From the IMG/VR virus record IMGVR_UViG_3300008450_000112, positions 1 through 40,429 of that record: a stretch of 40,429 nucleotides of DNA, one strand, 5' to 3'. Below the pieces are notes generated by a model. The model made no database searches. It was not told the origin of the DNA and was given only the letters and a program-made list of their open reading frames with translations. Position numbers and translations under genes: made by a program. Shown here one piece after another: positions 115-40,423 of this stretch (position 1 is its first letter; every line of letters starts with the position of its first letter). This DNA comes from a virus.

Positions 115-1372
115 CTGGAACATTTGGCTTGCAATGGCAGGCCGTGGATTTGGCAAAACAAGATTAGGCGCTGAAGAAATAGCCTGGCAAGCAATCGTTC
201 AACCCGCTACCAGGTGGGCAGTAGTTGCCCCTACATTCTCAGATGCTAGAGATACATGTGCTGAAGGTGAGTCAGGCATTGTTGCAGTGCTACAGCGCTA
301 TCAAATGCTTCAGAATTACAACCGTTCTATTGGTGAGATCCTGCTCAAGAACGGAAGCCGCATAAAGTTATTTAGCGCAGACAATCCTGAGCGTTTCCGT
401 GGCCCACAGCATCATGGCGCTTGGTGTGATGAATTAGGCGCATGGCGCTATCAAGATGCCTGGGATCAATTGCAGTTTGGCCTACGCCTGGGAAAGAAGC
501 CGCGGGTCATTGTTACCACCACACCGCGCTCTACGGCGCTTATACGCATGCTTGCAGGCCGTACAGATGGCTCAGTAGTTATTACCAGGGGATCAACATT
601 TGATAACGCTAAAAACCTAGCCCCTAGCGCATTGATGGAGTTACAAGCCCGCTACAACGGCACAAGATTGGGAAGGCAAGAACTTTATGGAGAAATCCTT
701 GATGATGTTGAAGGCGCGTTATGGACTAGAGGTTTAATTGACCGCACACGCATCACAACAGCCCCCACTATGGCCCGCATTGTTGTAAGCGTAGATCCTG
801 CCGTAACTAACTCAGAGAAGTCAGATGAAACAGGAATTGTTGTTGTTGGATCTACTTCAGACGGTCAGGGTTATGTACTGGGAGATTACTCATTTAGAGG
901 ATCACCGTTGCAGTGGGCTACAAAGGCAGTAGAACTATTTGACTCATACAAGGCAGATGCAGTTTTGGTTGAAGTAAACCAGGGCGGTGACATGGTGGGC
1001 GCAGTGTTGAAGCAAGTACGGCCTACCTTGCCAATCAGAGAAGTGCGAGCGCATGTGGGTAAGAAACTACGCGCTGAACCTGTAGCGGCTATGTATGAGC
1101 AGGGGCGTATTCACCACATTGGGGAGTTTGCAGAGTTAGAAGATCAGATGTGTACCTGGACAGTAGATGAACCCAACTCACCTGACCGCATTGATGCAAT
1201 GGTGCAGGGCTTTAGTGATCTATTAGGAAAAGTTACAGTCAGTAATTACTTTAATGCAATTGCTAACCATTGCCCTAAGTGTGGGTTGCCAATGCCTAAA
1301 TCATTTACACATTGTTCTGCATGTAGAACCGCTATGATTGACCCAAATTCTGAGGTGTCACAGGGAGCGTAA
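2..1372 (+). CDS. terL: Terminase large subunit (3' part; 5' part lies at the other contig end)
   Basis: This is the ATPase-nuclease motor that packages DNA into the prohead through the portal. The frame is open from base 2. A TTG at 14 would give 452 residues, but joining the contig ends restores an ATG at 40266 behind a good Shine-Dalgarno and a 473-residue protein. Visible motifs are Walker A GRGFGKT (about residues 64-70 of the joined protein), Walker B-like AWCDE, and the RNase H-like nuclease motif VVSVDPA with downstream acidic residues. An unusual feature is a C-terminal zinc-ribbon-like tail with two C-x2-C pairs (CPKC and CSAC), which most terminases lack. The stop overlaps the next start (TAATG). 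Confidence 0.95.
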   Translation, partial: KPQQLETLQPSQNSRIKASRWVWKNKLARKEQLPPEGDWNIWLAMAGRGFGKTRLGAEEIAWQAIVQPATRWAVVAPTFSDARDTCAEGESGIVAVLQRYQMLQNYNRSIGEILLKNGSRIKLFSADNPERFRGPQHHGAWCDELGAWRYQDAWDQLQFGLRLGKKPRVIVTTTPRSTALIRMLAGRTDGSVVITRGSTFDNAKNLAPSALMELQARYNGTRLGRQELYGEILDDVEGALWTRGLIDRTRITTAPTMARIVVSVDPAVTNSEKSDETGIVVVGSTSDGQGYVLGDYSFRGSPLQWATKAVELFDSYKADAVLVEVNQGGDMVGAVLKQVRPTLPIREVRAHVGKKLRAEPVAAMYEQGRIHHIGEFAELEDQMCTWTVDEPNSPDRIDAMVQGFSDLLGKVTVSNYFNAIANHCPKCGLPMPKSFTHCSACRTAMIDPNSEVSQGA

Positions 1373-1917
1373 TGGCTGACAATTACAACACAATAATTGA
1401 TCAAGGCTCTGACTGGTTTCGCAATTTCTTGTACACACAGCCTGCAACAATTACAAATGCAGTAGGCAACGGCACAACTGTTACATACACCGCAGAAAAC
1501 GGATTTAGTGCAGGGCAGACTGTTTACATTGAAGGCATCATGCCTAGCCAATACAACTTAGGCAATGTAACAATTGCTTCACGCACCTCAACACAATTTA
1601 CAGTTACTAATTCTGCTACGGGCTTGTACATTCAAGGTGGAGACGCATTAAGCGCAGTGGACATTACTGGTTACACAGCAACAATGCAGTTGCGCTCTTT
1701 ACCCAATGATCCAATTGCAGTTTTAACACTTACACAGGCAAGCGGCATTACAATTGATGGGCCTAGCGGAACTCTTGCAGTACGAGCAACAGCGGCACAA
1801 ACGGCGGCAATAATTGCAGGCCCGTATTATTATGATTTAGAGATAACATCACCTACTGGTGTGAAAACACGGCTTGTTCAGGGTGAATTAAATGTAAATG
1901 CAGAGGTGACAAGATGA
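1372..1917 (+). CDS. Fibre-associated beta-sandwich protein with inserted domain
   Basis: A virion protein of 181 residues, probably part of a fibre or baseplate adaptor. The C-terminal half (about 95-181) has the pattern of small phage beta-sandwich proteins of BppU-N type: GYTATMQLR, then hydrophobic strands, YYYDLEI and a closing GELNVNAEVTR. The usual first strand of this fold (IDQGSDWFRNF) is at residues 9-19. A separate domain of about 65 residues (NGFSAGQTVYIEGI, then YNLGNVTIASRT) is inserted after it. That insert resembles a small beta domain seen in other phage tail proteins. The gene overlaps terL upstream and the collagen-like gene downstream, so it is probably co-translated with both. 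Fold assignments are by eye. Confidence 0.6.
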   Translation: MADNYNTIIDQGSDWFRNFLYTQPATITNAVGNGTTVTYTAENGFSAGQTVYIEGIMPSQYNLGNVTIASRTSTQFTVTNSATGLYIQGGDALSAVDITGYTATMQLRSLPNDPIAVLTLTQASGITIDGPSGTLAVRATAAQTAAIIAGPYYYDLEITSPTGVKTRLVQGELNVNAEVTR

Positions 1918-4469
1918 CATACAACCCAAATAACTTTTTAAACAATCCAAACCCTGTTGGAACTCCCAATGTCATTGTTGTAACACCTGGCCCTATGGGG
2001 CAACAAGGCGCTCAGGGTATTCAAGGTATTTCAGGTAACTTCTCTGCTCAAGGTACGCAAGGTACACAGGGTTTACAAGGTGGCGGCTTTAATCAGGCAC
2101 AAGGAACACAGGGCTTAGAAGGCCCACAAGGATTAACTGGTGTTCAAGGTACAAATGGTTTGCAAGGTGTACAAGGCGCACAAGGCACAACAGGTATTCA
2201 AGGCCAAACTGGTATTCAAGGATCATTTGGTGTTCAAGGAATTAACGGAACACAAGGCACATCAGGAGCGCAGGGAGTTGAAGGCGTACAGGGTGCAACA
2301 GGAACACAGGGTTTAGTTGGCGTACAAGGAACTAATGGCGCGCAAGGTATTACAGGAACACAAGGAGCAACTGGTACACAGGGCTTGCTTGGTATTCAAG
2401 GTTCTATTGGCGCGCAAGGCACAACTGGTATTGATGGTGTTCAAGGCGCAACAGGAACTCAGGGCGTAACAGGAATTCAAGGCACTACAGGAACTCAGGG
2501 TGTGCAGGGCTTACTAGGTAATGTTGGAACACCTGGAACACAAGGAACAATAGGATCGCAAGGTTTAACTGGTGTGCAAGGTGCTATTGGTGATACTGGT
2601 TCACAAGGCACAACAGGAGCGCAAGGTGTTCAAGGTATTACTGGCACACAAGGTTTAACGGGTGCGCAAGGTACACAAGGAATTCAGGGCCATGACGGAA
2701 CACAGGGAACTGTTGGATCACAAGGAATTACTGGCGCACAAGGAACGATAGGCGCTCAAGGAATTGATGGAACACAGGGTTTAACAGGTGTTCAAGGATC
2801 AACGGGTGCGCAAGGTTTAACTGGTTTACAAGGTGTTACAGGCTCTCAAGGACTTGATGGAATTCAAGGAACTGTTGGAGCGCAAGGAACTCAAGGCGTA
2901 CAGGGAATTACTGGTAGCCAGGGTGTTCAGGGCTTAGATGGTATTCAAGGTGTGCAAGGTAATACTGGTGCAAGCGGTACATCATCATCTATTTTTGAGT
3001 ATGAAGCAGATACTAACTCACAAGCACCCGCACCTACCGCTGGTTACATTAGGTGGAATAACGCTACACAAATTTCTGCAACAAACATTTACATTTCTCA
3101 CTTAACAGATTTAAATGTGGACATTGATTTTCTATTAGCAAACATTAAAGATAATGACATTTTCTTCATTCAAGATAGAACTGACTCTAACAATTATCAA
3201 GAATGGGAAGTAAACGGCACACCTACATTTGTTACTAACAGTTATTTCACTTTTCCTGTAACGCTTATTGCATCAGGTGGAACAGGTACAACAAACTTTG
3301 CTAATAATGATCAAATTTCTCTTATTACTCAAAGCGTTGGTGTTCAAGGAGTTACTGGTGCGCAAGGCACGACAGGCGCGCAGGGAACTCAGGGCTTGCA
3401 GGGTGTTCAGGGAACTGAAGGTTTACAGGGAACAACTGGAACTCAAGGACTTGTTGGCGCTCAAGGTACAACTGGCGCACAAGGCATTGAAGGCTTGCAG
3501 GGTACTCAAGGAGTTCAAGGTGTAACTGGTTCTCAAGGACAAACTGGATCACAGGGCTTAGACGGTATTCAGGGAACTGTTGGCGCACAAGGTTTGACTG
3601 GATCTCAAGGTATTACTGGCACACAGGGAGCAGTAGGTGCGCAGGGCTTAGAAGGTTTGCAAGGAACTCAGGGAACTGAAGGATTGCAAGGAGTCACGGG
3701 TAGCCAGGGAACACAAGGAACGCAAGGCACACAAGGAACTCAAGGACTTGAGGGTTTGCAAGGTGTTACTGGATCTCAAGGTACTGATGGATTAAATGGT
3801 TCTCAAGGAACAACTGGTACTCAAGGTACAACTGGCACTCAGGGTATTACTGGATTGCAAGGAATTACTGGTACGCAAGGTACGCAAGGGCTTGAGGGAA
3901 TTCAGGGAACAACTGGATCTCAGGGGCTTGATGGAATTCAAGGTACTACTGGAACTCAGGGCTTAACTGGTACACAAGGAACTACTGGTGAGACTGGTAT
4001 TCAGGGAACGCAAGGTACAACTGGTATTCAGGGCGCTACTGGAACTCAAGGAACAACAGGTAGCCAGGGAACTCAAGGTACTCAGGGAGTTCAAGGAGTT
4101 CAAGGCACAATTGGTTTACAAGGTTTAACTGGAACTCAAGGAACATTGGGTACACAGGGAACTACTGGATCACTTCCTACAGTTACATTTAATGCTCAAT
4201 CAACTGCTTATCAATTGGTTGCAGGAGATGTAAATAAGTGGGTTACACAGAGCGGTACTGCAAACATTACTGTTCCTGCGGGAGTATTTAGTACTGGACA
4301 GGTTATTTATGTACAGCGTACGGGCGCAGGTGCGGTTTCTATCGTGGCAAGCGGCGTTACATTTACATCAAATGGATCTGCAAGCCCTGTATTACGCGCT
4401 CAATACAGTTCTGCATCAATTCTTTGTACAGGATCAAACACCTTTACAATTGTTGGAGACATTTCCTAA
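1914..4469 (+). CDS. Collagen-like fibre protein (G-x-Q/G-x-T repeats)
   Basis: An 851-residue fibre candidate built mainly of collagen-type Gly-X-Y triplets rich in Gln and Thr (typically GTQGTTG). Two triplet blocks, about 28-355 and 475-752, are separated by a non-collagen domain at about 357-473 that contains an EYEADTNS strand and aromatic beta segments. The C-terminal 95 residues form a beta tip ending in VGDIS and resemble the end of the protein at 22630. Collagen triplets normally form a trimeric helix, so this is probably a trimeric rod with a central knob and terminal tip. GAGGTG precedes the ATG, which overlaps the upstream stop (ATGA). Its place between terL and the portal is unusual for a fibre gene. 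It converges on minus-strand island 1. Role in adsorption is inferred. Confidence 0.8.
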   Translation: MTYNPNNFLNNPNPVGTPNVIVVTPGPMGQQGAQGIQGISGNFSAQGTQGTQGLQGGGFNQAQGTQGLEGPQGLTGVQGTNGLQGVQGAQGTTGIQGQTGIQGSFGVQGINGTQGTSGAQGVEGVQGATGTQGLVGVQGTNGAQGITGTQGATGTQGLLGIQGSIGAQGTTGIDGVQGATGTQGVTGIQGTTGTQGVQGLLGNVGTPGTQGTIGSQGLTGVQGAIGDTGSQGTTGAQGVQGITGTQGLTGAQGTQGIQGHDGTQGTVGSQGITGAQGTIGAQGIDGTQGLTGVQGSTGAQGLTGLQGVTGSQGLDGIQGTVGAQGTQGVQGITGSQGVQGLDGIQGVQGNTGASGTSSSIFEYEADTNSQAPAPTAGYIRWNNATQISATNIYISHLTDLNVDIDFLLANIKDNDIFFIQDRTDSNNYQEWEVNGTPTFVTNSYFTFPVTLIASGGTGTTNFANNDQISLITQSVGVQGVTGAQGTTGAQGTQGLQGVQGTEGLQGTTGTQGLVGAQGTTGAQGIEGLQGTQGVQGVTGSQGQTGSQGLDGIQGTVGAQGLTGSQGITGTQGAVGAQGLEGLQGTQGTEGLQGVTGSQGTQGTQGTQGTQGLEGLQGVTGSQGTDGLNGSQGTTGTQGTTGTQGITGLQGITGTQGTQGLEGIQGTTGSQGLDGIQGTTGTQGLTGTQGTTGETGIQGTQGTTGIQGATGTQGTTGSQGTQGTQGVQGVQGTIGLQGLTGTQGTLGTQGTTGSLPTVTFNAQSTAYQLVAGDVNKWVTQSGTANITVPAGVFSTGQVIYVQRTGAGAVSIVASGVTFTSNGSASPVLRAQYSSASILCTGSNTFTIVGDIS

Positions 4470-5140
4470 CGCACCCACAACATACCTACATCTGCGGTAG
4501 GGCGTAGGTTGGCTATTTTCCAACCGCCGTTTATCCATTCATCAGATGTAAGTTGATGCCAGGCGTTTAATTGATTGACATTGTTAGATTGCATGTTGCC
4601 CCACTCTTGAGGCTCTTGCAGATGGTTCACAATGTATTGCGCGGCCATTTCTCTGTAGCCCAATGTAAACAAATAATCTAACTGATCCTCATGCTGGTGC
4701 ATGGTTTCAAATGTCCACTCAAAACAAATCATGCCCCCGTAATGGCGGGTCATGCCTTTCATAACTTGCCACTCTGCACCTTCAACATCAATCTTGATCA
4801 AATCAGGATTGCCGTATGTATCTGCAAGGGTGTCAATGGTGATTGTGTTTACCTCAATCTCACGGTGAGACTTTCCTGCGTATGGCATGCGTTCATTTGT
4901 TAGCCAATCTTGGTTGAGCGAACTAAGGCCATCTTCATCTGCTTCATAGAACTTTAAGCGCTCGCCATCTTTGTCACTGACTGCCATTCTAAGAGGCACA
5001 ACATTAGGGTTGTAGATGAAGTTACCAACCAACTCTGAATAGACGCGTGGAGCGGCTTCTAAGGCTATTACACGGTATCCCTGCGCTAACCCTGCAAGCA
5101 CTGCATCACCACGATTAGCCCCAACATCAAATAGAAGCAT
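4466..5140 (-). CDS. FkbM-family SAM-dependent methyltransferase
   Basis: A 224-residue class I methyltransferase of FkbM type, a family that methylates sugar hydroxyls and natural products. The SAM-binding motif DVGANRGDAV is at residues 5-14, the acidic strand-2 end VIALEAAP at about 24-31, and the family hallmark LIKIDVEGAEW at about 114-124. The protein starts almost directly at motif I, so the N-terminus is short but domain-complete. It is last in a three-gene minus-strand operon and overlaps its upstream neighbour by 14 bases, suggesting translational coupling. Its end overlaps that of the collagen-like gene. Methylation of a phage- or host-derived glycan is the likely role; the substrate is unknown. 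Confidence 0.85.
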   Translation of the reverse strand: MLLFDVGANRGDAVLAGLAQGYRVIALEAAPRVYSELVGNFIYNPNVVPLRMAVSDKDGERLKFYEADEDGLSSLNQDWLTNERMPYAGKSHREIEVNTITIDTLADTYGNPDLIKIDVEGAEWQVMKGMTRHYGGMICFEWTFETMHQHEDQLDYLFTLGYREMAAQYIVNHLQEPQEWGNMQSNNVNQLNAWHQLTSDEWINGGWKIANLRPTADVGMLWVR

Positions 5141-5696
5141 TGCCTATCCTTTCAAGATTGTTTTGCACTGCGGCTTTGTACCCTGGATCTATGTCCATTG
5201 CATTTAAACGGCCTAGTATTTGAATACTTTCATCTTTGCGGCCAATCCACCAGGCGGCTACTGCCTTTTCAAATAGCAATACATAACTGCCTTCATAACC
5301 GACATGAACAGGAAGCGGTGAATGAAGTTGATTGTGCAATCCTATGTTTGCCCAGGTGTAGCACTCTTGCCATTGCCCTAAACGCTCATGGAACTGCGCA
5401 AGCAAGAAATAACCTTCAGGGCGGTATGGCAAATACGCAACAGCCTGCAATAAACAATTACTAACGGTTGCCTGGCGGTCATTTTGATCATCAAAACAAT
5501 GCGCGGTTTTAAGTAATGACGCATAAACCAGGGTGGGGTGTGACTCATGGCCGTATTCTGCGGTGCGCAAATAGAAAGAAACCGCTGAGGCTGTTTGGTT
5601 TTGCCTCTCATACTCCACTGCTACATCAAAATTAAGCGCTGGATTAAATGGATCTTTGGATAGTTCTACAACTAATTGCTCAATTCTCATAAGCAA
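5127..5696 (-). CDS. TPR-like helical repeat protein
   Basis: A 189-residue alpha-helical protein with TPR-type repeats. The pattern PALNFDVAVEYERQNQTASA is followed by paired helices around AEYGHESHPTLVYASLLKTA and YRPEGYFLLAQFHERLGQW. TPRs mediate protein contacts, and in glycan operons they often accompany sugar-modifying enzymes. The gene overlaps the upstream propeller gene by 17 bases and the downstream FkbM gene by 14, so the three are expressed together. No catalytic motif is visible. A scaffold for the two enzyme-like neighbours is a reasonable inference only. Confidence 0.6.
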   Translation of the reverse strand: MLMRIEQLVVELSKDPFNPALNFDVAVEYERQNQTASAVSFYLRTAEYGHESHPTLVYASLLKTAHCFDDQNDRQATVSNCLLQAVAYLPYRPEGYFLLAQFHERLGQWQECYTWANIGLHNQLHSPLPVHVGYEGSYVLLFEKAVAAWWIGRKDESIQILGRLNAMDIDPGYKAAVQNNLERIGNASI

Positions 5697-6681
5697 GGGC
5701 CTCCATAATTAGATCTTCTACTACTGCGCCAGGCACTTCAAGCACAAATGCGGCGTTATCCTGAAAACCAAAAGACACTAAAAGGTTGCCGTTATGGACT
5801 GCCGCGCCTACACAGAACTCAACGCGAGCATCTAAGAATGAAAATTCCTTACTTAGCCCCACAACATTTAATTCTTGATCCCACACAACTAAGCGGTGAC
5901 GGTAAATTGCATCTTTCTGCTTGAGGTAATTCTTAAATAGATCTACCTCATGGGTAATTGAGATGTACATACTGCCCCACCGTATGACCTGGCTAGATCC
6001 GCGCTGATCTTTAGGCGCTGGCTTTGTGTGGCGCACAAATACCTGTTCACACTCACCGCTAATGGGGTTGGCATAAACTAATTCTGTTGGCATTGTCCAT
6101 TTGATGAAGTGGTAAGGCTTATCAAGGACAGGTATCCAATTTTTCTCACAATAAGAAGCATCAGGAGCAGGTGCTTTAATACGCACACGCCTAACCTCTT
6201 TGACTGCCCAATTATCCCAGTCAATTTCAATACGGCTGTACTCCATGCGGCCTACACCGTTGGTTGTTGTATCGCGGCGCACTCCTACCAGGTAATAATC
6301 ATCTAGCCACTGCACAACGCGGCAATCTTCTTCACCCACAAACTCCCACATGGGTGTTACATCTAATACAGAAGTGTCCACTTTGGCGTGATGAGTCATT
6401 TCAAGATCATCATTAAGGCGGCATAAGTAATTAACAGTTACTAAGCGTTGATCCTTTTCAGGGTGCAGGTATGACAGTGGCCCAAAACGGCTAGGAAACT
6501 TCTGCTCATTTTCTGCATGGTACAGCGTGTAATTTACATGGCGTAAGTTCACAAGAATGTTGCCTTTGTCATCAATAAAAATTGATGGGTTCATTAGCCC
6601 TGTACCGCTAGTTAATCCGTGAGGGATTACCAGGGGCGCAAGTTTGCCACCGTGTTGAACTGCCTTCTCTACTAAGTTCAT
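5680..6681 (-). CDS. Putative beta-propeller glycan-active protein (GH43/GH130-like)
   Basis: First gene of the minus-strand operon, 333 residues. It has repeated beta-blade-like segments, each with an aromatic or acidic turn: NPSIFIDDKGNILVNLRHVN, VQWLDDYYLVGVRRD, GSSQVIRWGSMYISITHEVD and a late VSFGFQDNAAFVLEVP. This resembles five-bladed propeller proteins related to GH43/GH130 glycosidases and phosphorylases, which often act in glycosyltransferase clusters. Catalytic residues cannot be assigned confidently from sequence alone. No clear Shine-Dalgarno precedes the ATG; a TATTGT element lies 7 bases upstream on the minus strand. The FkbM and TPR neighbours support a role in making or trimming a glycan. 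Alternative: a non-enzymatic propeller. Confidence 0.5.
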   Translation of the reverse strand: MNLVEKAVQHGGKLAPLVIPHGLTSGTGLMNPSIFIDDKGNILVNLRHVNYTLYHAENEQKFPSRFGPLSYLHPEKDQRLVTVNYLCRLNDDLEMTHHAKVDTSVLDVTPMWEFVGEEDCRVVQWLDDYYLVGVRRDTTTNGVGRMEYSRIEIDWDNWAVKEVRRVRIKAPAPDASYCEKNWIPVLDKPYHFIKWTMPTELVYANPISGECEQVFVRHTKPAPKDQRGSSQVIRWGSMYISITHEVDLFKNYLKQKDAIYRHRLVVWDQELNVVGLSKEFSFLDARVEFCVGAAVHNGNLLVSFGFQDNAAFVLEVPGAVVEDLIMEALAYEN

Positions 6682-6688
6682 AAACCTT

Positions 6689-6720
6689 ACAATACATGAA
6701 CTTGCAAAAATCGCTATTAT
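6689..6720. promoter_or_regulatory. Divergent promoter region between island 1 and head genes
   Basis: The 83-base gap 6682-6764 separates divergent genes and must carry transcription start signals for both. Minus strand: TATTGT at 6694-6689, 7 bases before the ATG, compatible with a leaderless transcript. Plus strand: TATTAT at 6715-6720 is -10-like. No convincing -35 box was found for either. Confidence 0.35.
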
Positions 6721-6764
6721 TACAACACGCCTGATTTACAAGAGGCATAACAAGGGAGATACGC

Positions 6765-8612
6765 ATGGGTCTGCGTGACCGTATCGCAAGAGCATTAGCA
6801 ACTCAAGACATTGAAAAAGGCCCTAACCTGCCTGCGGGTGCTACAACAATTGGCACTGACGCACTTATGGCATCATCAGGTTTAGCAATGCAACAAACAT
6901 ACGGCAACAATGTTGCACTCCCACGCGCACCGTTTAGTTCAACAGTTCCATTTGGCCCAGGCAATCCAATTATCCCTGGTGCGATTAACCCAATTAACCC
7001 CGCTACTGGCCGCCCTGAACCGCGCCGCTATGAGTACCAGGTTGCTCAGAACATCAACATTGTTCCAACGCGTTTAGTTCCATTTACAACATTACGCGCC
7101 GCTGGTGACAGTATTGACATTTTGCGCCGTTGCATTGAAGTAACTAAATCAAAAATGAACGGCTTACAGTTTGACATTGTTCTTGGTGCAGACGCATCAG
7201 AGAAAATTGCGGCAGAGTCAGGCGGAGATCATGTGCGCGCTATGGCTAAGGCCCGCGAAAAGTACACAGATGAAATTAACCGCTTGCGTGAGTTTTGGGA
7301 AAACCCTGACAAAGCAAATGGATACACATGGAATGACTGGATCAACATTGCAATTGAGGACATTCTTGTAATTGATGCGCTTGCTATTTACCCACAACCA
7401 ACAGTAGGCGGAGATCTTTACGGTTTCCAAATTCTTGATGGCTCAACAATTAAGCCTCTTATTGATGACCGCGGTATGCGCCCAATGTCACCTAACGCGG
7501 CGTTCCAACAGATCCTTTACGGTTTCCCACGCTCAGAGTTTTCTGCAACAGAAGAAGATCCAAAGGCAGACGGTGAATTTACATCTGATCAATTGGCTTA
7601 CTTGGTTCGCAATCGCCGCTCAACAACTGTTTATGGATTTAGCCCAGTAGAGCGAGCGCTACCACTTGCTGACATTTATTTGCGCCGCCAACAATGGATC
7701 AGAGCAGAGTACACAGATGGTGTTATGCCTGAACTTATGTTTACAACTGATGAAGATTGGGGAACTAACCCTGATCTCTTGCTTGCTTATGAGCGTATTC
7801 TTAATGATGATCTCGCAGGGCAGACAGAGCAACGCAAGCGCGCTCGCCTATTGCCAAAAGGTTTAACACCTGTTGTTAATGAAGGTTATGGCGAGAAGTT
7901 CAAGGACACACTTGATGATTATTTAGTTACTTCTATTTGCGGACACTTTGGCGTACAACCATCTGAAATTGGTTTCTCACCAAAGGGCGGATTGGGTGGC
8001 GCTGGTTTCTCAGAAGGACAAGCAGAAAACGGTGAAGCGCTAGGCATTGGGCCTCTTGCTAACTGGATCTCTAAGCAACTTACAAATCTTTCTTACACAT
8101 ACTTAGGCATGCCGCGTGAACTTGAATTTAAATTGCTTACATCAGAGCGCAAAGACACAGAAGAAAATGCGCGTAAGAATGAGATTGAAGTGCGTTCAGG
8201 CGGTAAGTCAATCAATGAGCGCAGATCAGAACTTGGTTTGCCGTTGCTAGATACACCTCAAGCAGACATGCCAATTATGGTTGCAGGCTCAAGCGTTTTG
8301 TTGTTCTCACCTGATGGATTGATTGATGCGGCTAGTGCGGCAACAGCGCCAACATTAAGCGGCCCTGATGCAAAACCTGATGCGCCTACAACTCCTAATC
8401 CTCTTGAGCAGAAACCTTCTACTGAAGTACAACCTGAAGAAGATGAAGTGACTGAAGTAAAAGCATTTATGAAATGGGCGGCTAAAGGTAAGCGCGCAAG
8501 ATTATTTGAATTCAAATCACTTGATCCAATTGTGGGAGATGCGCTCAACCGTTGTGCTTTTGATGGTGATTTAGATACTGCGCGAGCGCTGGCTAAGGCT
8601 TATCTAACATGA
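6765..8612 (+). CDS. Portal protein
   Basis: A 615-residue protein expected to form the dodecameric DNA gate at one capsid vertex and to bind terminase. The central region has the usual portal pattern: DILRRCIEVTKSKMNGLQFD (about 112-131), RLREFWENPDK, a conserved block around PVERALPLADIYLRRQQW, and a helical clip/crown region with FGVQPSEIGFSPKGG. The C-terminal 90 residues are Pro/Glu-rich and probably flexible. Start is the ATG behind AAGGGAG. It overlaps the MuF-type gene by four bases (ATGA), the usual portal-minor head protein arrangement, and lies about 5.4 kb from terL because fibre genes and island 1 intervene. Confidence 0.85.
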   Translation: MGLRDRIARALATQDIEKGPNLPAGATTIGTDALMASSGLAMQQTYGNNVALPRAPFSSTVPFGPGNPIIPGAINPINPATGRPEPRRYEYQVAQNINIVPTRLVPFTTLRAAGDSIDILRRCIEVTKSKMNGLQFDIVLGADASEKIAAESGGDHVRAMAKAREKYTDEINRLREFWENPDKANGYTWNDWINIAIEDILVIDALAIYPQPTVGGDLYGFQILDGSTIKPLIDDRGMRPMSPNAAFQQILYGFPRSEFSATEEDPKADGEFTSDQLAYLVRNRRSTTVYGFSPVERALPLADIYLRRQQWIRAEYTDGVMPELMFTTDEDWGTNPDLLLAYERILNDDLAGQTEQRKRARLLPKGLTPVVNEGYGEKFKDTLDDYLVTSICGHFGVQPSEIGFSPKGGLGGAGFSEGQAENGEALGIGPLANWISKQLTNLSYTYLGMPRELEFKLLTSERKDTEENARKNEIEVRSGGKSINERRSELGLPLLDTPQADMPIMVAGSSVLLFSPDGLIDAASAATAPTLSGPDAKPDAPTTPNPLEQKPSTEVQPEEDEVTEVKAFMKWAAKGKRARLFEFKSLDPIVGDALNRCAFDGDLDTARALAKAYLT

Positions 8613-10243
8613 TTGAGGGCGCTCTCAAGGCAGATGGGCGCTTAGCGGCAAAGAACGCAGTGAAGATTAGGGCGGCACTGCACCAGGTAACAGACTTCAA
8701 ACGAGTCTTTAACAAATACCAGGAAACAATGCCACAGCCAACGGATAACCCTACGCAAGATCGTGTGCGCGCTCGCTCATGGGTTTTGCTAAATGTTTAC
8801 CTTAATGATGAACCCCTACGCAATGCCGTTATGCAAGCCTGGGCGGAGGCTTATGTTTTGGGCGCTGTTGCCGCTAGTGAATGGTTAGAAAAAACCCGCA
8901 TAGCAAACAAGGCTGATGACATTGAAATCAATTGGGATAAATGGCGGCCAGGAGATACGGCTACCGCTTTAAGAATTACTCCAACTGAAGGTTTTAGCAA
9001 ATACTTGCGAACAGTAAACGCAGATAGTTATTTTAAAAATTTTAACAAAGAAACTGTTACAAATTTAGGCACTGCTCTTTCTGACGCAATAGCCGCTGGT
9101 TTAGATGCTGAAAGTGCCGCTGTAATGATTGGGCGGCATGTAGCAAACCCTAGCCGCGCTTTGACTATTGCAATTACTGAGCAGAACCGCGCTATGTCGT
9201 TTTCAAGCATTGAGCGTTACAAAGAGGCTGGCTTGCAAAAGATGGAATGGGCCGTGTCTGACCCGTGTGACATTTGCGCAAAAAATGATGGGCAAGTAAT
9301 TCTTATTGGGCAAACATTTGCATCAGGAGACGCGCAACCCCCTGCTCACCCGCATTGCCGTTGCGTATTACTACCTGTAATTCCTGGCATGGAAGATGAT
9401 TTGACAGGCGGAACAGTTACAAGCCCAACAATTGATGCTGACGGCGCAATTGCAAATGAACCTTTCACTCCTGGTGTTGTGCCACAAGGCGAGTGGACAT
9501 TAGTAACAGAAGATAGATGGGTAGAACGCCAGGAGGCTATTCGTTTACAACGCGGGCTAGGGCCTGCAAATGAAAATCATTTGCGTATTATCCGTGATCA
9601 AGTTGCAGATGCTCAAGCAATTTATGAACGCGGGCCTAACATTGTTGTTTTAGGTAATGATGTTACAACAGTAACAGAAGAACACATGAAACAATTTATG
9701 AGAAATTTTGATCTTGCTTATGAAAAATTACCTGAATGGCGAAGGGTAAGCCCTGACGGTTCTTTAAGAGGCTATTCTTTAATTATCAATAATAAAGACC
9801 GTTACCGTTCTTCTTTGGCTTATACATACATAGGACATGACTCTATTTGGTTCTCCCCTGGTGATGTTATTTCTTCATTAAACCCACCTAAAGATTGGGC
9901 GGGCTGGTTTATGCCTGCGGCTAATAGTGTTTCTGAAAATCTTTACACAATTATGCATGAGTTAGGCCACACCACAGATAGTTATGTAAATGATAATAAA
10001 CGCGGGTATGTAAGAAGCCTTCTGACGCGTAAATACAAACAATTATTTTCAAAGTACAGCCGTAAAAATACTAAAGAAACTTACGCGGAAATTTTTGCTC
10101 AATGGGGATTGGGTGAAAAAAATGCATTAACTGAAGCCTATGCAGAAGCATTTGGTTGGGATTTATCTGCCGCAGAGTATTACGAGAAGTTTGGTGAATT
10201 TGATCGTTGGAAGCCTAGTATGAGACCGTCAGGGGTGCGTTAA
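8609..10243 (+). CDS. MuF/SPP1 gp7-like minor head protein with C-terminal HExxH domain
   Basis: A 544-residue two-part protein. The N-terminal half is the minor head (MuF) domain, with its Cys/His signature CDICAKNDG and PPAHPHCRCVLLPV (about 222-256). This family sits inside the head near the portal and can be ejected with DNA. The C-terminal half (about 310-544) carries HELGH (450-454), a zinc-metallopeptidase HExxH motif. Glutamates downstream at 490 and 494 or in YAEAFG could be the third ligand. MuF proteins are known carriers of variable C-terminal toxin or enzyme domains, so a packaged protease effector is plausible. The gene overlaps the portal gene by four bases. Confidence 0.8.
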   Translation: MIEGALKADGRLAAKNAVKIRAALHQVTDFKRVFNKYQETMPQPTDNPTQDRVRARSWVLLNVYLNDEPLRNAVMQAWAEAYVLGAVAASEWLEKTRIANKADDIEINWDKWRPGDTATALRITPTEGFSKYLRTVNADSYFKNFNKETVTNLGTALSDAIAAGLDAESAAVMIGRHVANPSRALTIAITEQNRAMSFSSIERYKEAGLQKMEWAVSDPCDICAKNDGQVILIGQTFASGDAQPPAHPHCRCVLLPVIPGMEDDLTGGTVTSPTIDADGAIANEPFTPGVVPQGEWTLVTEDRWVERQEAIRLQRGLGPANENHLRIIRDQVADAQAIYERGPNIVVLGNDVTTVTEEHMKQFMRNFDLAYEKLPEWRRVSPDGSLRGYSLIINNKDRYRSSLAYTYIGHDSIWFSPGDVISSLNPPKDWAGWFMPAANSVSENLYTIMHELGHTTDSYVNDNKRGYVRSLLTRKYKQLFSKYSRKNTKETYAEIFAQWGLGEKNALTEAYAEAFGWDLSAAEYYEKFGEFDRWKPSMRPSGVR

Positions 10244-22629: not shown

Positions 22630-23526
22630 ATGACACTACAAACGCCCCCATCATGGCTACAGGCAGGCTCATACCCTGCTCAGTATGACCGTTTAACAGC
22701 GCAAGCATTGTGGGCCACTACTGGCACAATTGGTAGTTCTTCATTGGCTGTTAGCCCTAATTCTCCTGTTGGTATGTCAGTACGCGTTGCTTCAGGCTGG
22801 GCCGCAATTGTTGGAACAACTACAACAAACATGGGCGTTTACACAATTTTCAATGACGCAACCGATACGCTAACAATTACAACAGCCGATCCAACAAACC
22901 CACGCATTGATCTTGTGTGTGCAACAGTGCGTGATGCTTTTTATTCAGGTGCTAACAATGATGTAATTTTTCAAGTAATTGCGGGAACTCCTGCGGGATC
23001 TCCTGTTGCTCCCGCACTTCCTGCTAATTCAATTTCACTTGCAACCGTTGCAGTAGGTGCGGCTGTAACTCAAATTAACTCAGGTGACATTACAGACACA
23101 CGCGTTGCTGTTACTACAAACATTCCTGAAACTGGTGACATTTCTAGCGTTACAGCGGGAGCGGGATTAACAGGAGGCGGATCAAGCGGGGCTGTAACTT
23201 TAGCCGCAAGCGTTGCAACAAATACACAAACAGGAACAACTTACACTTTGGCTTTAGCAGACAACGGCAAACTTGTCACACTTGCAAACGGTTCTTCTAT
23301 TGCAGTAACAATTCCTCTTAACAGTTCTGTTGCATTGCCTGTTGGTGCTGTTATTATTATGGCGGCTTATGGAGCAGGCGCAGTAACAATTTCAGGAGCA
23401 GGAGGCGTAACTGTGGTTTCAAATGGAGCAACAGCCGCAACGCCTGTAATCCGCACAACTTATTCTTCTGTTGCCGCTATTCAAACTTCTGCAAACAATT
23501 GGTTAGTGGTAGGAGATCTTATCTAA
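22630..23526 (+). CDS. Tail tip / receptor-binding candidate
   Basis: A 298-residue protein. Residues 1-175 match a widespread minor tail protein pattern (WLQAGSYPAQYDRL, MSVRVASGWAAIVG, NPRIDLVCATVRD, ISLATVAVGAAVTQI), typical of baseplate or fibre-attachment proteins. After a Gly-rich GAGLTGGGSSG hinge, the C-terminal 95 residues form a beta domain ending in VVGDLI. That domain resembles the tip of the collagen-like fibre at 1914. Start is the ATG behind AAGGGAG; its stop overlaps the next start. Confidence 0.65.
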   Translation: MTLQTPPSWLQAGSYPAQYDRLTAQALWATTGTIGSSSLAVSPNSPVGMSVRVASGWAAIVGTTTTNMGVYTIFNDATDTLTITTADPTNPRIDLVCATVRDAFYSGANNDVIFQVIAGTPAGSPVAPALPANSISLATVAVGAAVTQINSGDITDTRVAVTTNIPETGDISSVTAGAGLTGGGSSGAVTLAASVATNTQTGTTYTLALADNGKLVTLANGSSIAVTIPLNSSVALPVGAVIIMAAYGAGAVTISGAGGVTVVSNGATAATPVIRTTYSSVAAIQTSANNWLVVGDLI

Positions 23527-24944
23527 TGTCACTTCTTAGTGTAATTTCAGGATCAGATAGAAGCGTACCTAGCGCTCCTACAATTGGAACTGCAACAGAT
23601 GTTGGTACTGCTCGCGCCTATAACAATGGTGCGGCATCAGTAACATTTACTGCGCCAACTTATACAGGGCGTTTACCAATTACCTCTTACACAGTTACAT
23701 CTAGCCCAGGCGGGTTTACCGCTTCAGGTGCATCATCTCCTTTAACTGTTACAGGTTTGCAATCATCTACTTCATACACTTTTACTGTTACTGCCACAAA
23801 TTCTTTAGGTACAAGCGCGGCTTCATCTGCATCAAATAGCATTACTGCAACAACAGTTCCACAAGCACCTACTATTGGAACAGCAACAGGAGGCAATGCT
23901 TCTGCAACCGTTACCTATACAGCAAATGCAACGGGCGGAAAGGCTGTATCTGCTTACACAGCAACTTCATCTCCTGGATCATTAACAGGAACAGGCGCAA
24001 GTCCTATTACAGTTTCAGGATTAACTAACGGAACTGCTTACACATTTACAGTTACAGCAACTAACGCTAATGGAACATCAACCGCTTCAGCGGCTTCTAA
24101 CTCAGTAACTCCTGTTGCTCCACTTCCTGCTCCAACGAGTGTTGATTATCTTGTTGTTGCTGGCGGTGGTGGAGGTAATCAATCTGGTGCTGGAGCGGGT
24201 GGTTTTAGAACTGGAAGTTTAGCGGTTTCAACTTCATTCACCGTCACAGTAGGCGCTGGTGGCGCTGGTGGACCAACATCACTTTATCAACCTGCAGTAA
24301 ACGGAAGCAACTCTGTATTTAGCAGTATTACATCAGCAGGTGGTGGTGGTGGTGCTACAGGTAATCCTGGCAGTAGTGCTAATGGTGTAGCAGGAGGTTC
24401 AGGTTCAGGTGCTTGGGGTTCGTCAGGAACGGTTGGCGCGGGTAACACTCCTTCAACATCTCCGTCACAAGGTAATAATGGTGGAGCAGGTGCAACTCCT
24501 GGTGCATACGGCGGTGGTGGTGGAGCGAGCGCGGCTGGTACTAGTGGTGTTGCTATTGGACCTCCAGGTTTTGAGACTTATGGTGGCAACGGTGGAGCAG
24601 GTTCAAGTTCATCAATTACTGGAACATCAACTGCATACGCTGGAGGAGGCGCGGCGTCAAGTGGTAATGTTACAGCGATACAGCCTGGAGGAGTAGGTGG
24701 AGGCGGTAATGGCGGTAATGGTAGCGCTGCCGCAACCGCTGGAGGAACTAATTTAGGTGGCGGATCAGGTGGAGGATCTGTTGGTGGATACAAAGCAGGT
24801 GGTTCAGGTGTAGTTATTATTGCCTACCCCAATACTTCAGCGGCATTGACTTCTATTCCTGGGACATTAACTTATGACCAACCAACACGAAGTGGTTATA
24901 GAGTTTATCGTTTTACTGCTGGAACAGGAACGGTGACGGTCTAA
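23526..24944 (+). CDS. Fibronectin type III and glycine-rich tail fibre protein
   Basis: A 472-residue fibre protein. I start it at ATG 23526, overlapping the upstream stop (TAATG), rather than at 23499. Two fibronectin type III domains occupy about 10-205 (PITSYTVTSSPGG and a second copy with SAYTATSSPGS, each ending in AYTFTVTATN-like strands). The remainder is a Gly-rich domain (VDYLVVAGGGGG onward) closing with GSGVVIIAYP and YRVYRFTAGTGTVTV. This Gly-rich family is known in phage fibres and may form packed polyglycine helices that present variable loops to receptors. Confidence 0.75.
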   Translation: MSLLSVISGSDRSVPSAPTIGTATDVGTARAYNNGAASVTFTAPTYTGRLPITSYTVTSSPGGFTASGASSPLTVTGLQSSTSYTFTVTATNSLGTSAASSASNSITATTVPQAPTIGTATGGNASATVTYTANATGGKAVSAYTATSSPGSLTGTGASPITVSGLTNGTAYTFTVTATNANGTSTASAASNSVTPVAPLPAPTSVDYLVVAGGGGGNQSGAGAGGFRTGSLAVSTSFTVTVGAGGAGGPTSLYQPAVNGSNSVFSSITSAGGGGGATGNPGSSANGVAGGSGSGAWGSSGTVGAGNTPSTSPSQGNNGGAGATPGAYGGGGGASAAGTSGVAIGPPGFETYGGNGGAGSSSSITGTSTAYAGGGAASSGNVTAIQPGGVGGGGNGGNGSAAATAGGTNLGGGSGGGSVGGYKAGGSGVVIIAYPNTSAALTSIPGTLTYDQPTRSGYRVYRFTAGTGTVTV

Positions 24945-25324
24945 TGGCACATTACGCATTTCTTGATGAAAACAACATTGTTACTGAAGTAATTGTTGGG
25001 CGCAATGAAGATGAAATTGTAGATGGTATTTCTAATTGGGAAATCGCTTACGCAGAAGTACGCGGTCAGGTATGTAAAAGAACTTCTTACAACACAAGCG
25101 CAGGAGTGCATGCAAAGGGCGGAGTTCCATTCCGTAAAAATTATGCAGGCATTGGCATGATTTTTGATGAAGAAAGAGATGCTTTTTATGCACCTCAACC
25201 ATTTCCTTCATGGATACTTAATGAAGAAACTTGCATTTGGGAAGCGCCTATTTCCATGCCTGAACATGATCCCGCAATTGAATTTCCTTTATGGAATGAA
25301 GCAACTCAATCATGGGAATTATGA
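24944..25324 (+). CDS. Conserved aquatic-phage fibre-region protein
   Basis: A 126-residue protein of a type I recognise from many marine and freshwater phages, usually next to fibre genes. Features are AHYAFLDENNIVTEVIVGRN at the start, a central RKNYAGIGMIFDEERDAFY and the closing PSWILNEETCIWEAP. Function is unknown. Position at the end of the fibre block suggests a fibre tip or attachment role. It overlaps the upstream stop (TAATG) and converges with the minus-strand gene that follows, their ends overlapping by six bases. Confidence 0.6.
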   Translation: MAHYAFLDENNIVTEVIVGRNEDEIVDGISNWEIAYAEVRGQVCKRTSYNTSAGVHAKGGVPFRKNYAGIGMIFDEERDAFYAPQPFPSWILNEETCIWEAPISMPEHDPAIEFPLWNEATQSWEL

Positions 25325-26041
25325 GTAAGTTTTTTTAGACCAAATGTTTTTTATGTAATGATTAACAATTGTGCCATTAAAATTTTTATCTTCTAATTTT
25401 TGGTATTCCCCATTTTTAAGGTATGAGTATTCTGCTTTCCAATCAGAACGCTTAAATGGAACAACCTGAACCATAGGTGTGCCTTTTTCTAGTATGCCTT
25501 CAAAATCATTTGTAAACCAAACAGGAGGCAGTATTTCAAGATTGCTTCTATCGGTATCAATAACGGCTGGTATTGCTTGAACACCAGTTTGACGATAACC
25601 AAAAGGTTGTGTAATTAAACATGAATAACCTTTAGGTGTAATTATTCTCCATTTATTAAGAAACTTAAATACTTGTGAATTAAAACCAATAGGTGTTTCT
25701 ACTTCTGCTCTTGCTTGCATACCATGTTCTTGAAACACTGCTTCTGTTGTTCGCCAGGTAATAATTTTGTTTTCACCTTCATTTTTTATTTGAACATCTG
25801 ACCACAATGGAATGATGTAACCTGTTGTAAGAGCGTCCAACATAGGAACACATTTTTTAGGGCCTGCATTTGACACGCGCTCTCTAACAATCAATTTATT
25901 GCCTTTAGGGTTATCTTCACTTTTGGTGTAAGGAGTCATAGCCTTCCACCATTCAGGGATTGCTTGAGTTGCAGGGTATGGGCGTTCTGCTACTTCCCAC
26001 CCGTATTCATCTCTTGCTTCAAACTTAATTATTTGTTTCAT
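25319..26041 (-). CDS. Conserved phage protein of unknown function (possibly DUF6065 family)
   Basis: A 240-residue minus-strand gene behind TATTAGGAGG. It has IPEWWKAMTPY near the N-terminus, KKCVPMLDALTTGYIIPLWS in the middle, a KFLNKWRIITPKGYSCLIT core and VWFTNDFEGILEKGTPMVQV later. I recognise this as a family found in aquatic phages and tentatively link it to DUF6065, which has no established function. The KGTPMVQVVPF stretch suggests a beta-rich pocket. It is alone on the minus strand within the tail genes, converging on a fibre-region gene, like a moron insertion. Confidence 0.5.
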   Translation of the reverse strand: MKQIIKFEARDEYGWEVAERPYPATQAIPEWWKAMTPYTKSEDNPKGNKLIVRERVSNAGPKKCVPMLDALTTGYIIPLWSDVQIKNEGENKIITWRTTEAVFQEHGMQARAEVETPIGFNSQVFKFLNKWRIITPKGYSCLITQPFGYRQTGVQAIPAVIDTDRSNLEILPPVWFTNDFEGILEKGTPMVQVVPFKRSDWKAEYSYLKNGEYQKLEDKNFNGTIVNHYIKNIWSKKTYS

Positions 26042-36220: not shown

Positions 36221-36490
36221 ATGACTACACCAACAGTTCACAATCACAATCAAGATGCAACAGCAACACAATTTCACACAGATACAAATTGCTGGTGTGC
36301 GGTAGCAAAAGTTAATCTTGATCAATTTATGACAGATGTTCACACTGGTACAGGTTTTACATTTGACACTTTTCACAAAATGTTTCGTTATGTAAATGAG
36401 CGTTATTTTGGCCGTACTTTGTACACACAAATTAAGAGCGAACAAATTACGGTTGATGAAGTTGTATCACTTATGAAGGGAGCAATGTAA
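36221..36490 (+). CDS. Hypothetical protein
   Basis: An 89-residue protein with a His-rich N-terminus (TVHNHNQDATATQFHTD), a CWC pair and a helical C-terminal half (FHKMFRYVNERYFGRTL, then VDEVVSLMKGAM). No family recognised. It overlaps the Gp88-like gene by one base. Confidence 0.55.
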   Translation: MTTPTVHNHNQDATATQFHTDTNCWCAVAKVNLDQFMTDVHTGTGFTFDTFHKMFRYVNERYFGRTLYTQIKSEQITVDEVVSLMKGAM

Positions 36491-37203
36491 TGACATGGCC
36501 TAAGAAATTATTAACTCAAAACAGTGAGTTAAAACCTGATGGCATTTTTAATTGGACATTGCCCGCTTTTGGCGTAACGCTTACAAACGGAAAAACTATG
36601 AATGTTTGCCCTAACGCGGGTGTGTGCGCTTCTTTTTGTTATGCCAGGAACGGCACTTACAACTTTTCTAATGTCAAGCGCCGCCACATTCAAAACCTTG
36701 AGTACATTCTTGATGAACCGCAGGCATGGTTTGATCAGATGCTTGCTGAGGTTTCAAAACCAAAGATGAAAGGCAAGCATGTGCGCATACATGATGCGGG
36801 TGATTTTTTTAGTGAAGATTATTTACACATGTGGTTCAAAATTGCTGAACTTGTGCCTGATGTAACTTTTTATTGCTATACAAAAGAAGTAGCCATGTTT
36901 AAAAAGCAAACTAATGTGCCATCTAATTTTAAGTATTTGTTCTCAATGGGCGGCAAGCAAGATCATTTAATCAATCTTGAGAATGACCGCCATGCAGAAG
37001 TGTTTAAAGATGATGCGGCCATTTTAGATGCTGGTTATGGCAATCAAGATGCTTCTGATTTGCTGGCAATTACATTACCAACAAACAAAATTGGTATTCC
37101 TGCCAATAACATTAAACATTTTAATAAAAAAATGGCTGGCAAAACATTTGGTGAATTACAGTTAGAACGCAATTACAAAAAAGAAAAGAGAACATGCCAG
37201 TGA
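36490..37203 (+). CDS. Gp88-family protein
   Basis: A 237-residue protein of the phage 'gene product 88' family. It shows CPNAGVCASFCYARNGTY (about 38-55, spacing C-x5-C-x3-C), HVRIHDAGDFFSEDYL (about 97-112) and VTFYCYTKEVAMF (about 122-134). The clustered cysteines next to a Tyr-Ala and the barrel-like strand order recall iron-sulfur or radical-SAM proteins, but the spacing is not the standard C-x3-C-x2-C. No function is established to my knowledge. GGGAG lies before the ATG. Confidence 0.7.
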   Translation: MTWPKKLLTQNSELKPDGIFNWTLPAFGVTLTNGKTMNVCPNAGVCASFCYARNGTYNFSNVKRRHIQNLEYILDEPQAWFDQMLAEVSKPKMKGKHVRIHDAGDFFSEDYLHMWFKIAELVPDVTFYCYTKEVAMFKKQTNVPSNFKYLFSMGGKQDHLINLENDRHAEVFKDDAAILDAGYGNQDASDLLAITLPTNKIGIPANNIKHFNKKMAGKTFGELQLERNYKKEKRTCQ

Positions 37204-39925: not shown

Positions 39926-40423
39926 ATGGTAGAAAATACGCGTGATTTAGTAGAAAAAGAAACAACCATAATTGAGTTGCGCCATGAAGGTTATGTGTGG
40001 CGTGAGATAGCAGTTATGGTGGACATGAGCGTTGCTGGTGTTGCTAAGGCATACAAGCGCGCTTTAACGCGTCACCCGCATGCCACGATAGATGAACACC
40101 GTGAACTGGAATTAGATCGTTTAGATAATTTACAGCGTACTTACTGGCAACCTGCGGTGGCTGGCAATTTAAGAGCGGCAGATTTTGTTCTACGCGTAAT
40201 TGATAAGCGCGCAAAATTACTGGGATTAGATGCACCATTGAAGGTACAAGCAGAGGTGGTTACTTATGACGGATCAGACCTGGACAGAGAAGTTGAACGA
40301 GTCGCAAGAATTATTGAAGCCTCAACAGTTGGAGACATTGCAACCATCACAGAACTCACGGATCAAGGCGAGCCGTTGGGTATGGAAGAACAAACTAGCG
40401 CGGAAGGAACAACTACCGCCTGA
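39926..40423 (+). CDS. terS: Terminase small subunit
   Basis: A 165-residue DNA-recognition subunit of the packaging motor. The N-terminal HTH (ELRHEGYVWREIAVMVDMSV, then AGVAKAYKRAL) is followed by a helical oligomerisation segment (HRELELDRLDNLQRTYWQPA) and the typical FVLRVIDKRAKLLGLDAP block. The ATG has no ribosome site and is probably leaderless. Its last 158 bases overlap the start of terL in another frame. The end of the gene repeats at bases 1-108 of the window. Confidence 0.85.
   Translation: MVENTRDLVEKETTIIELRHEGYVWREIAVMVDMSVAGVAKAYKRALTRHPHATIDEHRELELDRLDNLQRTYWQPAVAGNLRAADFVLRVIDKRAKLLGLDAPLKVQAEVVTYDGSDLDREVERVARIIEASTVGDIATITELTDQGEPLGMEEQTSAEGTTTA

What the first reader, a model, noticed from the sequence alone, without database searches (positions are those of the whole stretch)
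4466..6681. Glycan-type gene island beside the collagen-like fibre
Three overlapping minus-strand genes (propeller/glycosidase-like, TPR, FkbM methyltransferase) lie inside the structural region and converge on the fibre gene. A phage-encoded glycan modification of the fibre or of host surface sugars would explain the placement.
Basis: partly seen in the sequence, partly recalled or inferred. Interest (0 to 1): 0.7.

Follow-up and report, generated by a model that had tools for sequence, protein, structure and literature searches.

The report
Phage glycosylation cassette beside collagen-like fibre
Three overlapping phage genes (a beta-mannosyltransferase-like propeller, a TPR partner and a sugar-type methyltransferase) form a widespread cassette that is repeatedly found beside threonine-rich, proline-poor collagen-like virion proteins and so probably decorates them with methylated sugars; the chemistry and the target are inferred, not shown.

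Summary
In detail: three overlapping minus-strand genes (6681-5680 propeller, 5696-5127 TPR, 5140-4466 FkbM methyltransferase) lie between a collagen-like virion gene and the portal gene. The propeller is predicted with high confidence as a five-bladed beta-mannoside phosphorylase/mannosyltransferase fold (GH130 Z 20-23, GT108 Z 16-18); residues matching GH130's mannose site (N31, E118/D119, D308) are invariant in 179 non-redundant phage members. Propeller and TPR are an obligate pair (177 of 178 loci), sometimes fused; one bacterial ORF joins FkbM, a TPR-like middle and the propeller. So this is a glycan-building cassette, not a chance cluster, and a transferase is likelier than a glycosidase. 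The fibre link is supported by two tests not selected on the cassette: among the window's portal relatives, cassette and collagen are both present (18) or both absent (20), never mixed; and the cassette accompanies 33/79 Thr-type but 0/80 Pro-type collagen loci. Yet T4-like phages carry it without collagen, so collagen is not its only target. Best reading: it O-glycosylates and O-methylates virion proteins, here the Thr-rich collagen. No sugar, linkage or acceptor has been shown. New variant of a known kind.

The parts
5680..6681 (-). five-bladed propeller, predicted beta-mannosyltransferase/phosphorylase-like (333 aa); N31, R47, G116, E118, D119, K180-N181-W182, R227-G228, H244, Y260, E288, F289, G292, D308 invariant in 179 nr phage members
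   Evidence: model pLDDT 87.5 pTM 0.88; GH130 Z 20-23, GT108 Z 16-18; hhalign to 30 GH130 proteins prob 91 E 1e-6, conservation in 179 nr members
5127..5696 (-). TPR partner protein (189 aa from TTG 5696, 187 aa from ATG 5690)
   Evidence: PF13431 26.4 bits; partner in 177/178 loci; fused to propeller in L128, L163-L166, L169
4466..5140 (-). FkbM-family SAM methyltransferase (224 aa), probable sugar O-methyltransferase
   Evidence: PF05050 1e-17, TIGR01444 3.6e-25; model pLDDT 90.7, nearest solved 2PY6 FkbM Z 14.0, rmsd 2.0 over 148 residues
1914..4469 (+). collagen-like virion protein (851 aa): 191 Gly-X-Y triplets, Thr at 64 X and 46 Y sites, Pro 2 of 382, no Lys among them; proposed acceptor
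   Evidence: PF01391 301.8 bits; triplet count; co-occurrence
6682..6764 (.). 83-bp divergent gap between cassette start and portal start; no sigma-70-like promoter found by consensus
1372..1917 (+). small conserved gene (g2) between terminase and collagen gene, phrog_1084; context, not part of the cassette
   Evidence: present in both cassette and cassette-less relatives

Best explanation
The three genes are a virion-glycosylation cassette. In this phage the acceptor is most likely the adjacent collagen-like decoration/fibre protein, whose proline-poor triple helix is full of threonine hydroxyls. Shown here: gene anatomy, predicted fold, conserved sugar-site residues, obligate pairing and fusions, statistical linkage to Thr-rich collagen. 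Inferred: enzymatic activity, donor, sugar, linkage, attachment to threonine, methylation of that sugar, and any effect on helix stability or adsorption.
For: Fold: nearest solved structures are GH130 mannoside phosphorylases, then Leishmania GT108 mannosyltransferases. Active site: hhalign places N31, E118-D119, F289 and D308 on conserved GH130 positions that correspond, by motif and spacing, to BT3780 N74, E141-D142, F344, D363 (PMC4599007) and Teth514_1788 N28, E91-D92, D281 (PMC4264767); E141Q, D142N and D363A abolish BT3780 activity. The S-SCSM2R member aligns GLEDCR with GIEDCR of the mannoside synthase Uhgb_MS (E 0.47, weak alone). A bacterial relative found with the phage profile is GT2-TPR-propeller and scores over cut-off for fungal beta-mannosyltransferases PF12141, E 1.7e-7. 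Teamwork: 177/178 loci pair propeller with TPR; both fusion orders exist; the TPR domain sits in proteins with GT2, GT17, GT25, GT7C and FkbM domains; one bacterial ORF runs FkbM, TPR-like middle, propeller (L663; its TPR part is read by eye, the profile did not score it). Target: portal-seeded loci 18 with both, 20 with neither, 0 mixed; 3 independent changes on the portal tree, all concordant; Thr-type collagen 33/79 vs Pro-type 0/80 loci, 27/63 vs 0/65 after removing duplicates and isolates; 28 of the 33 lie in loci without the window's structural genes.
Against: No biochemistry. T4-like phages carry the cassette without collagen, so the acceptor cannot be collagen in general. Cassette and collagen could be co-transferred passively as one block. 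Thr-type and Pro-type collagens may come from different phage groups or habitats, which the comparison does not fully control. Only three independent changes on the portal tree (sign test p 0.25). The window propeller itself misses every Pfam family cut-off.
Confidence: 0.6

Rival explanations
1. The cassette modifies the host's surface glycans (LPS, capsule) so that superinfecting phages cannot adsorb, and lies next to the collagen gene because both are adsorption-related and travel together.
For: Bacterial relatives are fused to GT2 and to Gly_transf_sug/Caps_synth-type domains typical of polysaccharide synthesis; phage glycosyltransferases are often read that way, e.g. PMC7029224.
Against: Joint presence/absence with collagen at one virion locus; the preference for Thr-rich over Pro-rich collagen has no reason under this reading.
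Confidence: 0.17
2. The cassette glycosylates another virion protein (capsid, decoration, neck), and collagen is a passenger in the same module.
For: T4-like phages have it beside virion structural phrog_3758, a head-tail adaptor homologue and DUF7936 genes without collagen.
Against: Specific association with Thr-rich, Pro-poor collagen in otherwise unrelated phages.
Confidence: 0.15
3. The propeller is a hydrolase or lectin-like domain that cuts or binds host beta-mannosides, an accessory to adsorption.
For: GH43 folds also match (Z about 17); some GH130 members are hydrolases (PMC4599007).
Against: Paired with TPR almost without exception and usually near a methyltransferase or glycosyltransferase; its closest cellular relatives by sequence are domains of glycosyltransferase proteins.
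Confidence: 0.05
4. It glycosylates phage DNA.
For: Known phage glycosyltransferases often act on DNA (established knowledge; no tool result here points to it).
Against: The window genes scanned show no hypermodified-base pathway (not every gene was scanned); linkage is to a virion gene.
Confidence: 0.03

Closest known systems
GH130 beta-mannoside phosphorylases (BT3780, BfMGP, Teth514_1788)
   Same: five-bladed propeller, GxED motif, Asn and two Asp of the -1 mannose subsite
   Different: about 10-17% identity, below Pfam cut-off, near-obligate TPR partner, phage-encoded, no catabolic context
GT108 Leishmania mannosyltransferases (MPT) and fungal BMT (PF12141; CAZy GT91 from memory)
   Same: GT108: fold at Z 16-18; BMT: a bacterial relative of the propeller scores over the PF12141 cut-off
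   Different: window protein itself has no PF12141 match; donor and linkage untested
Mimivirus L230 collagen lysyl hydroxylase/glucosyltransferase (PMC9614988)
   Same: virus-encoded enzyme that glycosylates the virus's own collagen-like protein, which is also proline-poor
   Different: GT25-like glucosyltransferase acting on hydroxylysine; the window's collagen triplets have no Lys and the enzyme is a propeller
Bacillus BclA exosporium collagen-like glycoprotein
   Same: bacterial collagen-like region that is glycosylated (PMC8968730); O-methylated sugars on its threonines recalled from memory
   Different: different glycosyltransferases; a spore protein, not a virion protein
Chlorovirus A064R (PMC9614988)
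   Same: virus-encoded glycosyltransferase domains joined to a methyltransferase domain that builds the capsid glycan
   Different: different glycosyltransferase fold; N-glycan on the capsid; eukaryotic virus

Membership tests
GH130 (PF04041) | sequence above the family's curated cut-off (26 bits) | tested here: not met
   12.3 bits; best phage relative 21.4 bits
GH130 (PF04041) | five-bladed beta-propeller | tested here: met
   predicted model, Z 20-23 to GH130 structures
GH130 (PF04041) | catalytic Asp of the ED motif and -1 subsite Asn/Asp | tested here: met
   hhalign alignment and invariance in 179 nr sequences
GH130 (PF04041) | three basic phosphate-binding residues | tested here: inconclusive
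   K180, R227 and H244 are invariant, but their equivalence to the GH130 positions could not be mapped
GT108 | mannosyltransferase/phosphorylase activity with GDP-Man or Man-1-P | not testable with these tools
   fold match only, Z 16-18
BMT (PF12141) | sequence above cut-off (28.3 bits) | tested here: not met
   no hit for the window protein; bacterial relative L660 30.7 bits
FkbM methyltransferase (PF05050/TIGR01444) | sequence above cut-off | tested here: met
   65.2 vs 22.7 and 89.1 vs 37.7 bits
FkbM methyltransferase (PF05050/TIGR01444) | sugar O-methylation | not testable with these tools
   fold nearest 2PY6; activity untested
GH43 | fold and catalytic carboxylate triad | tested here: inconclusive
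   fold Z about 17; triad not mapped
Collagen (PF01391) | Gly-X-Y repeats above cut-off | tested here: met
   301.8 vs 27.2 bits

The most novel reading that the evidence does not exclude
A dedicated collagen-glycosylation system of bacterial viruses: a new propeller glycosyltransferase family, with a TPR presenter and a methylating cap, O-glycosylates threonines of nearly proline-free collagen and thereby replaces hydroxyproline as the stabiliser of the triple helix.
Probability: 0.35. Interest if true: 0.82.

Novelty: new variant of a known kind. Interest (0 to 1): 0.64.

Why it matters
Virion glycosylation is known in a few phages and in giant viruses, but the literature searches here found no description of this cassette, and PHROGs has no family that matches the propeller. 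If the cassette glycosylates collagen, it would explain how proline-poor viral collagens hold together and give a genetic handle on how phages modify surface fibres. The pairing with one class of collagen makes the hypothesis directly testable.

Tried and rejected
Sequence search of the propeller against PDB gave no relative; profile searches gave mainly repeat-type lectin matches, read as noise. The genome-contig scan for cellular homologues returned five contigs, which look like phage sequence binned into MAGs; clear cellular relatives are rare and multidomain: 4 of 590 genomes in two phyla, besides the two seed genomes. The distance profile of collagen ORFs along cassette loci showed upstream enrichment but no sharp peak, so the unselected tests were used instead. 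The C-terminal domain common to most long TPR proteins is only weakly FkbM-like (hhalign probability up to 32), so it is not counted as a methyltransferase. A paper search for FkbM methyltransferase + phage + collagen-like gave nothing. The idea that the genes between FkbM and collagen in relatives are further sugar enzymes was rejected: where identified they are Gly-rich or fn3 proteins of virion type. 'Foreign island' by base composition rejected. First attempts that failed on technical grounds: structure job with rows from the phage collection.

Full report
What is there. The three minus-strand ORFs exist at the stated coordinates and overlap each other; the last shares stop-codon bases with the convergent collagen-like gene. 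The FkbM methyltransferase is a clear family member, the TPR assignment passes its cut-off narrowly, and the propeller is unrecognised by Pfam, NCBIfam and PHROGs at their thresholds. The window is an IMG/VR virus record.

The propeller. A 35-sequence alignment gave a model of pLDDT 87.5 and pTM 0.88. The best solved structures are GH130 mannoside phosphorylases (Z 20-23), then GT108 Leishmania mannosyltransferases (16-18) and GH43 enzymes (about 17). A profile of 179 phage sequences aligned to 30 GH130 proteins with probability 91 and E 1e-6, superposing N31, E118-D119, F289 and D308 on conserved GH130 positions; by motif and spacing these are the active-site residues named in PMC4599007 and PMC4264767. 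N31, E118, D119 and D308 do not vary in those 179 sequences, and N31, R47, G116, E118, D119, K180-N181-W182, R227-G228, H244, Y260, E288, G292 and D308 stay invariant when bacterial relatives are added (numbered there on L660). The site is therefore conserved as an enzyme's would be. Bacterial relatives are domains of multidomain glycosyltransferases; one scores over cut-off for fungal beta-mannosyltransferases. Related folds occur in giant viruses, some in proteins named as glycosyltransferases. I therefore prefer transferase over hydrolase, without proof.

The cassette. Of 316 propellers, 274 have the TPR gene directly downstream. In 178 loci with enough flank, 177 hold a TPR homologue. The two are fused in both orders in a few phages. 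The TPR domain is also fused to FkbM plus radical SAM/SPASM in Dishui Lake cyanophage DSL-LC02, whose genome was assembled from a metagenome (PMC10611076), and it sits with GT2, GT17, GT25 and GT7C domains elsewhere. A bacterial ORF carries FkbM, a TPR-like middle and the propeller in one chain. FkbM is dispensable: L048 and L087 lack it beside the pair. The core is thus propeller + TPR, with methylation as an accessory.

Link to collagen. Two tests did not select for the cassette. First, a scan with the window's portal protein: of 38 loci reaching from terminase to portal, 18 have cassette and collagen, 20 have neither, none is mixed. With cassette-seeded loci added, 42 distinct portals give 24 and 18, again unmixed; the state changes three times on the portal tree and both traits change together each time. 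The gene in collagen's place in cassette-less relatives is a head-decoration-type protein. Second, artificial collagen queries: Thr-type loci carry the propeller in 33 of 79, Pro-type loci in 0 of 80, p about 1e-12; 27/63 versus 0/65 after removing duplicates and isolate genomes; no locus with 10% or more proline in its repeats has it, 0 of 59. Only 5 of the 33 share structural genes with the window's phage family. The window's collagen has 191 triplets, 29% threonine in X/Y sites, two prolines and no lysine there.

Limits. In T4-like phages the cassette occurs without collagen, beside other virion genes. The control terminase was itself taken from a cassette-bearing contig, so its 26/79 is not a base rate. 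Habitat and lineage may confound the Thr/Pro comparison. The three portal-tree changes are too few for significance on their own. Passive co-transfer of collagen and cassette cannot be excluded. No sugar, donor or acceptor is demonstrated, and attachment to threonine is inferred from composition only.

Comparison. It would work like mimivirus L230, which modifies the virus's own collagen (PMC9614988), like Bacillus BclA, a glycosylated collagen-like protein (PMC8968730), and like chlorovirus A064R, which joins glycosyltransferase and methyltransferase domains. It is a member of none of these; the propeller fails the GH130 and BMT sequence cut-offs while meeting GH130's fold and active-site features. 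I rate it a new variant of a known kind: a virion-glycosylation cassette built around a propeller family that I found undescribed.

Noticed in passing
window 25319-26041 (-): Lone minus-strand DUF6065-like gene (26.5 bits, cut-off 26.6) in the plus-strand tail region, just downstream of an fn3 + Gly-rich fibre-like gene (23499-24944): possibly a second, separate modification gene.
   Followed up: no
window 8609-10243: Minor head protein has a long C-terminal extension with an HELGH zinc-protease-type motif and a weak, sub-cut-off match to a metallopeptidase-type family.
   Followed up: no
L662, L663, L664, L666: Bacterial proteins of 774 to over 1200 aa combining GT2 or FkbM, TPR, the same propeller and, in the longer ones, a second glycosyltransferase domain; an uncharacterised cellular glycosyltransferase architecture.
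   Followed up: partly
BFVD hits to Pithovirus LCPAC and Solivirus: Close fold matches of the propeller (TM about 0.75) in uncharacterised giant-virus proteins, one inside a protein named alpha-1,3-fucosyltransferase.
   Followed up: no
L089, L180, L208 and other T4-like loci: Recurring neighbours of the cassette: cytidylyltransferase fused to mannose-6-phosphate isomerase-like cupin, 2OG-Fe(II) oxygenase, radical SAM proteins and DUF7936.
   Followed up: partly
window 36490-37203 and 39926-40423: GP88 (PF17338) and an RNase E-like protein (phrog_645).
   Followed up: no
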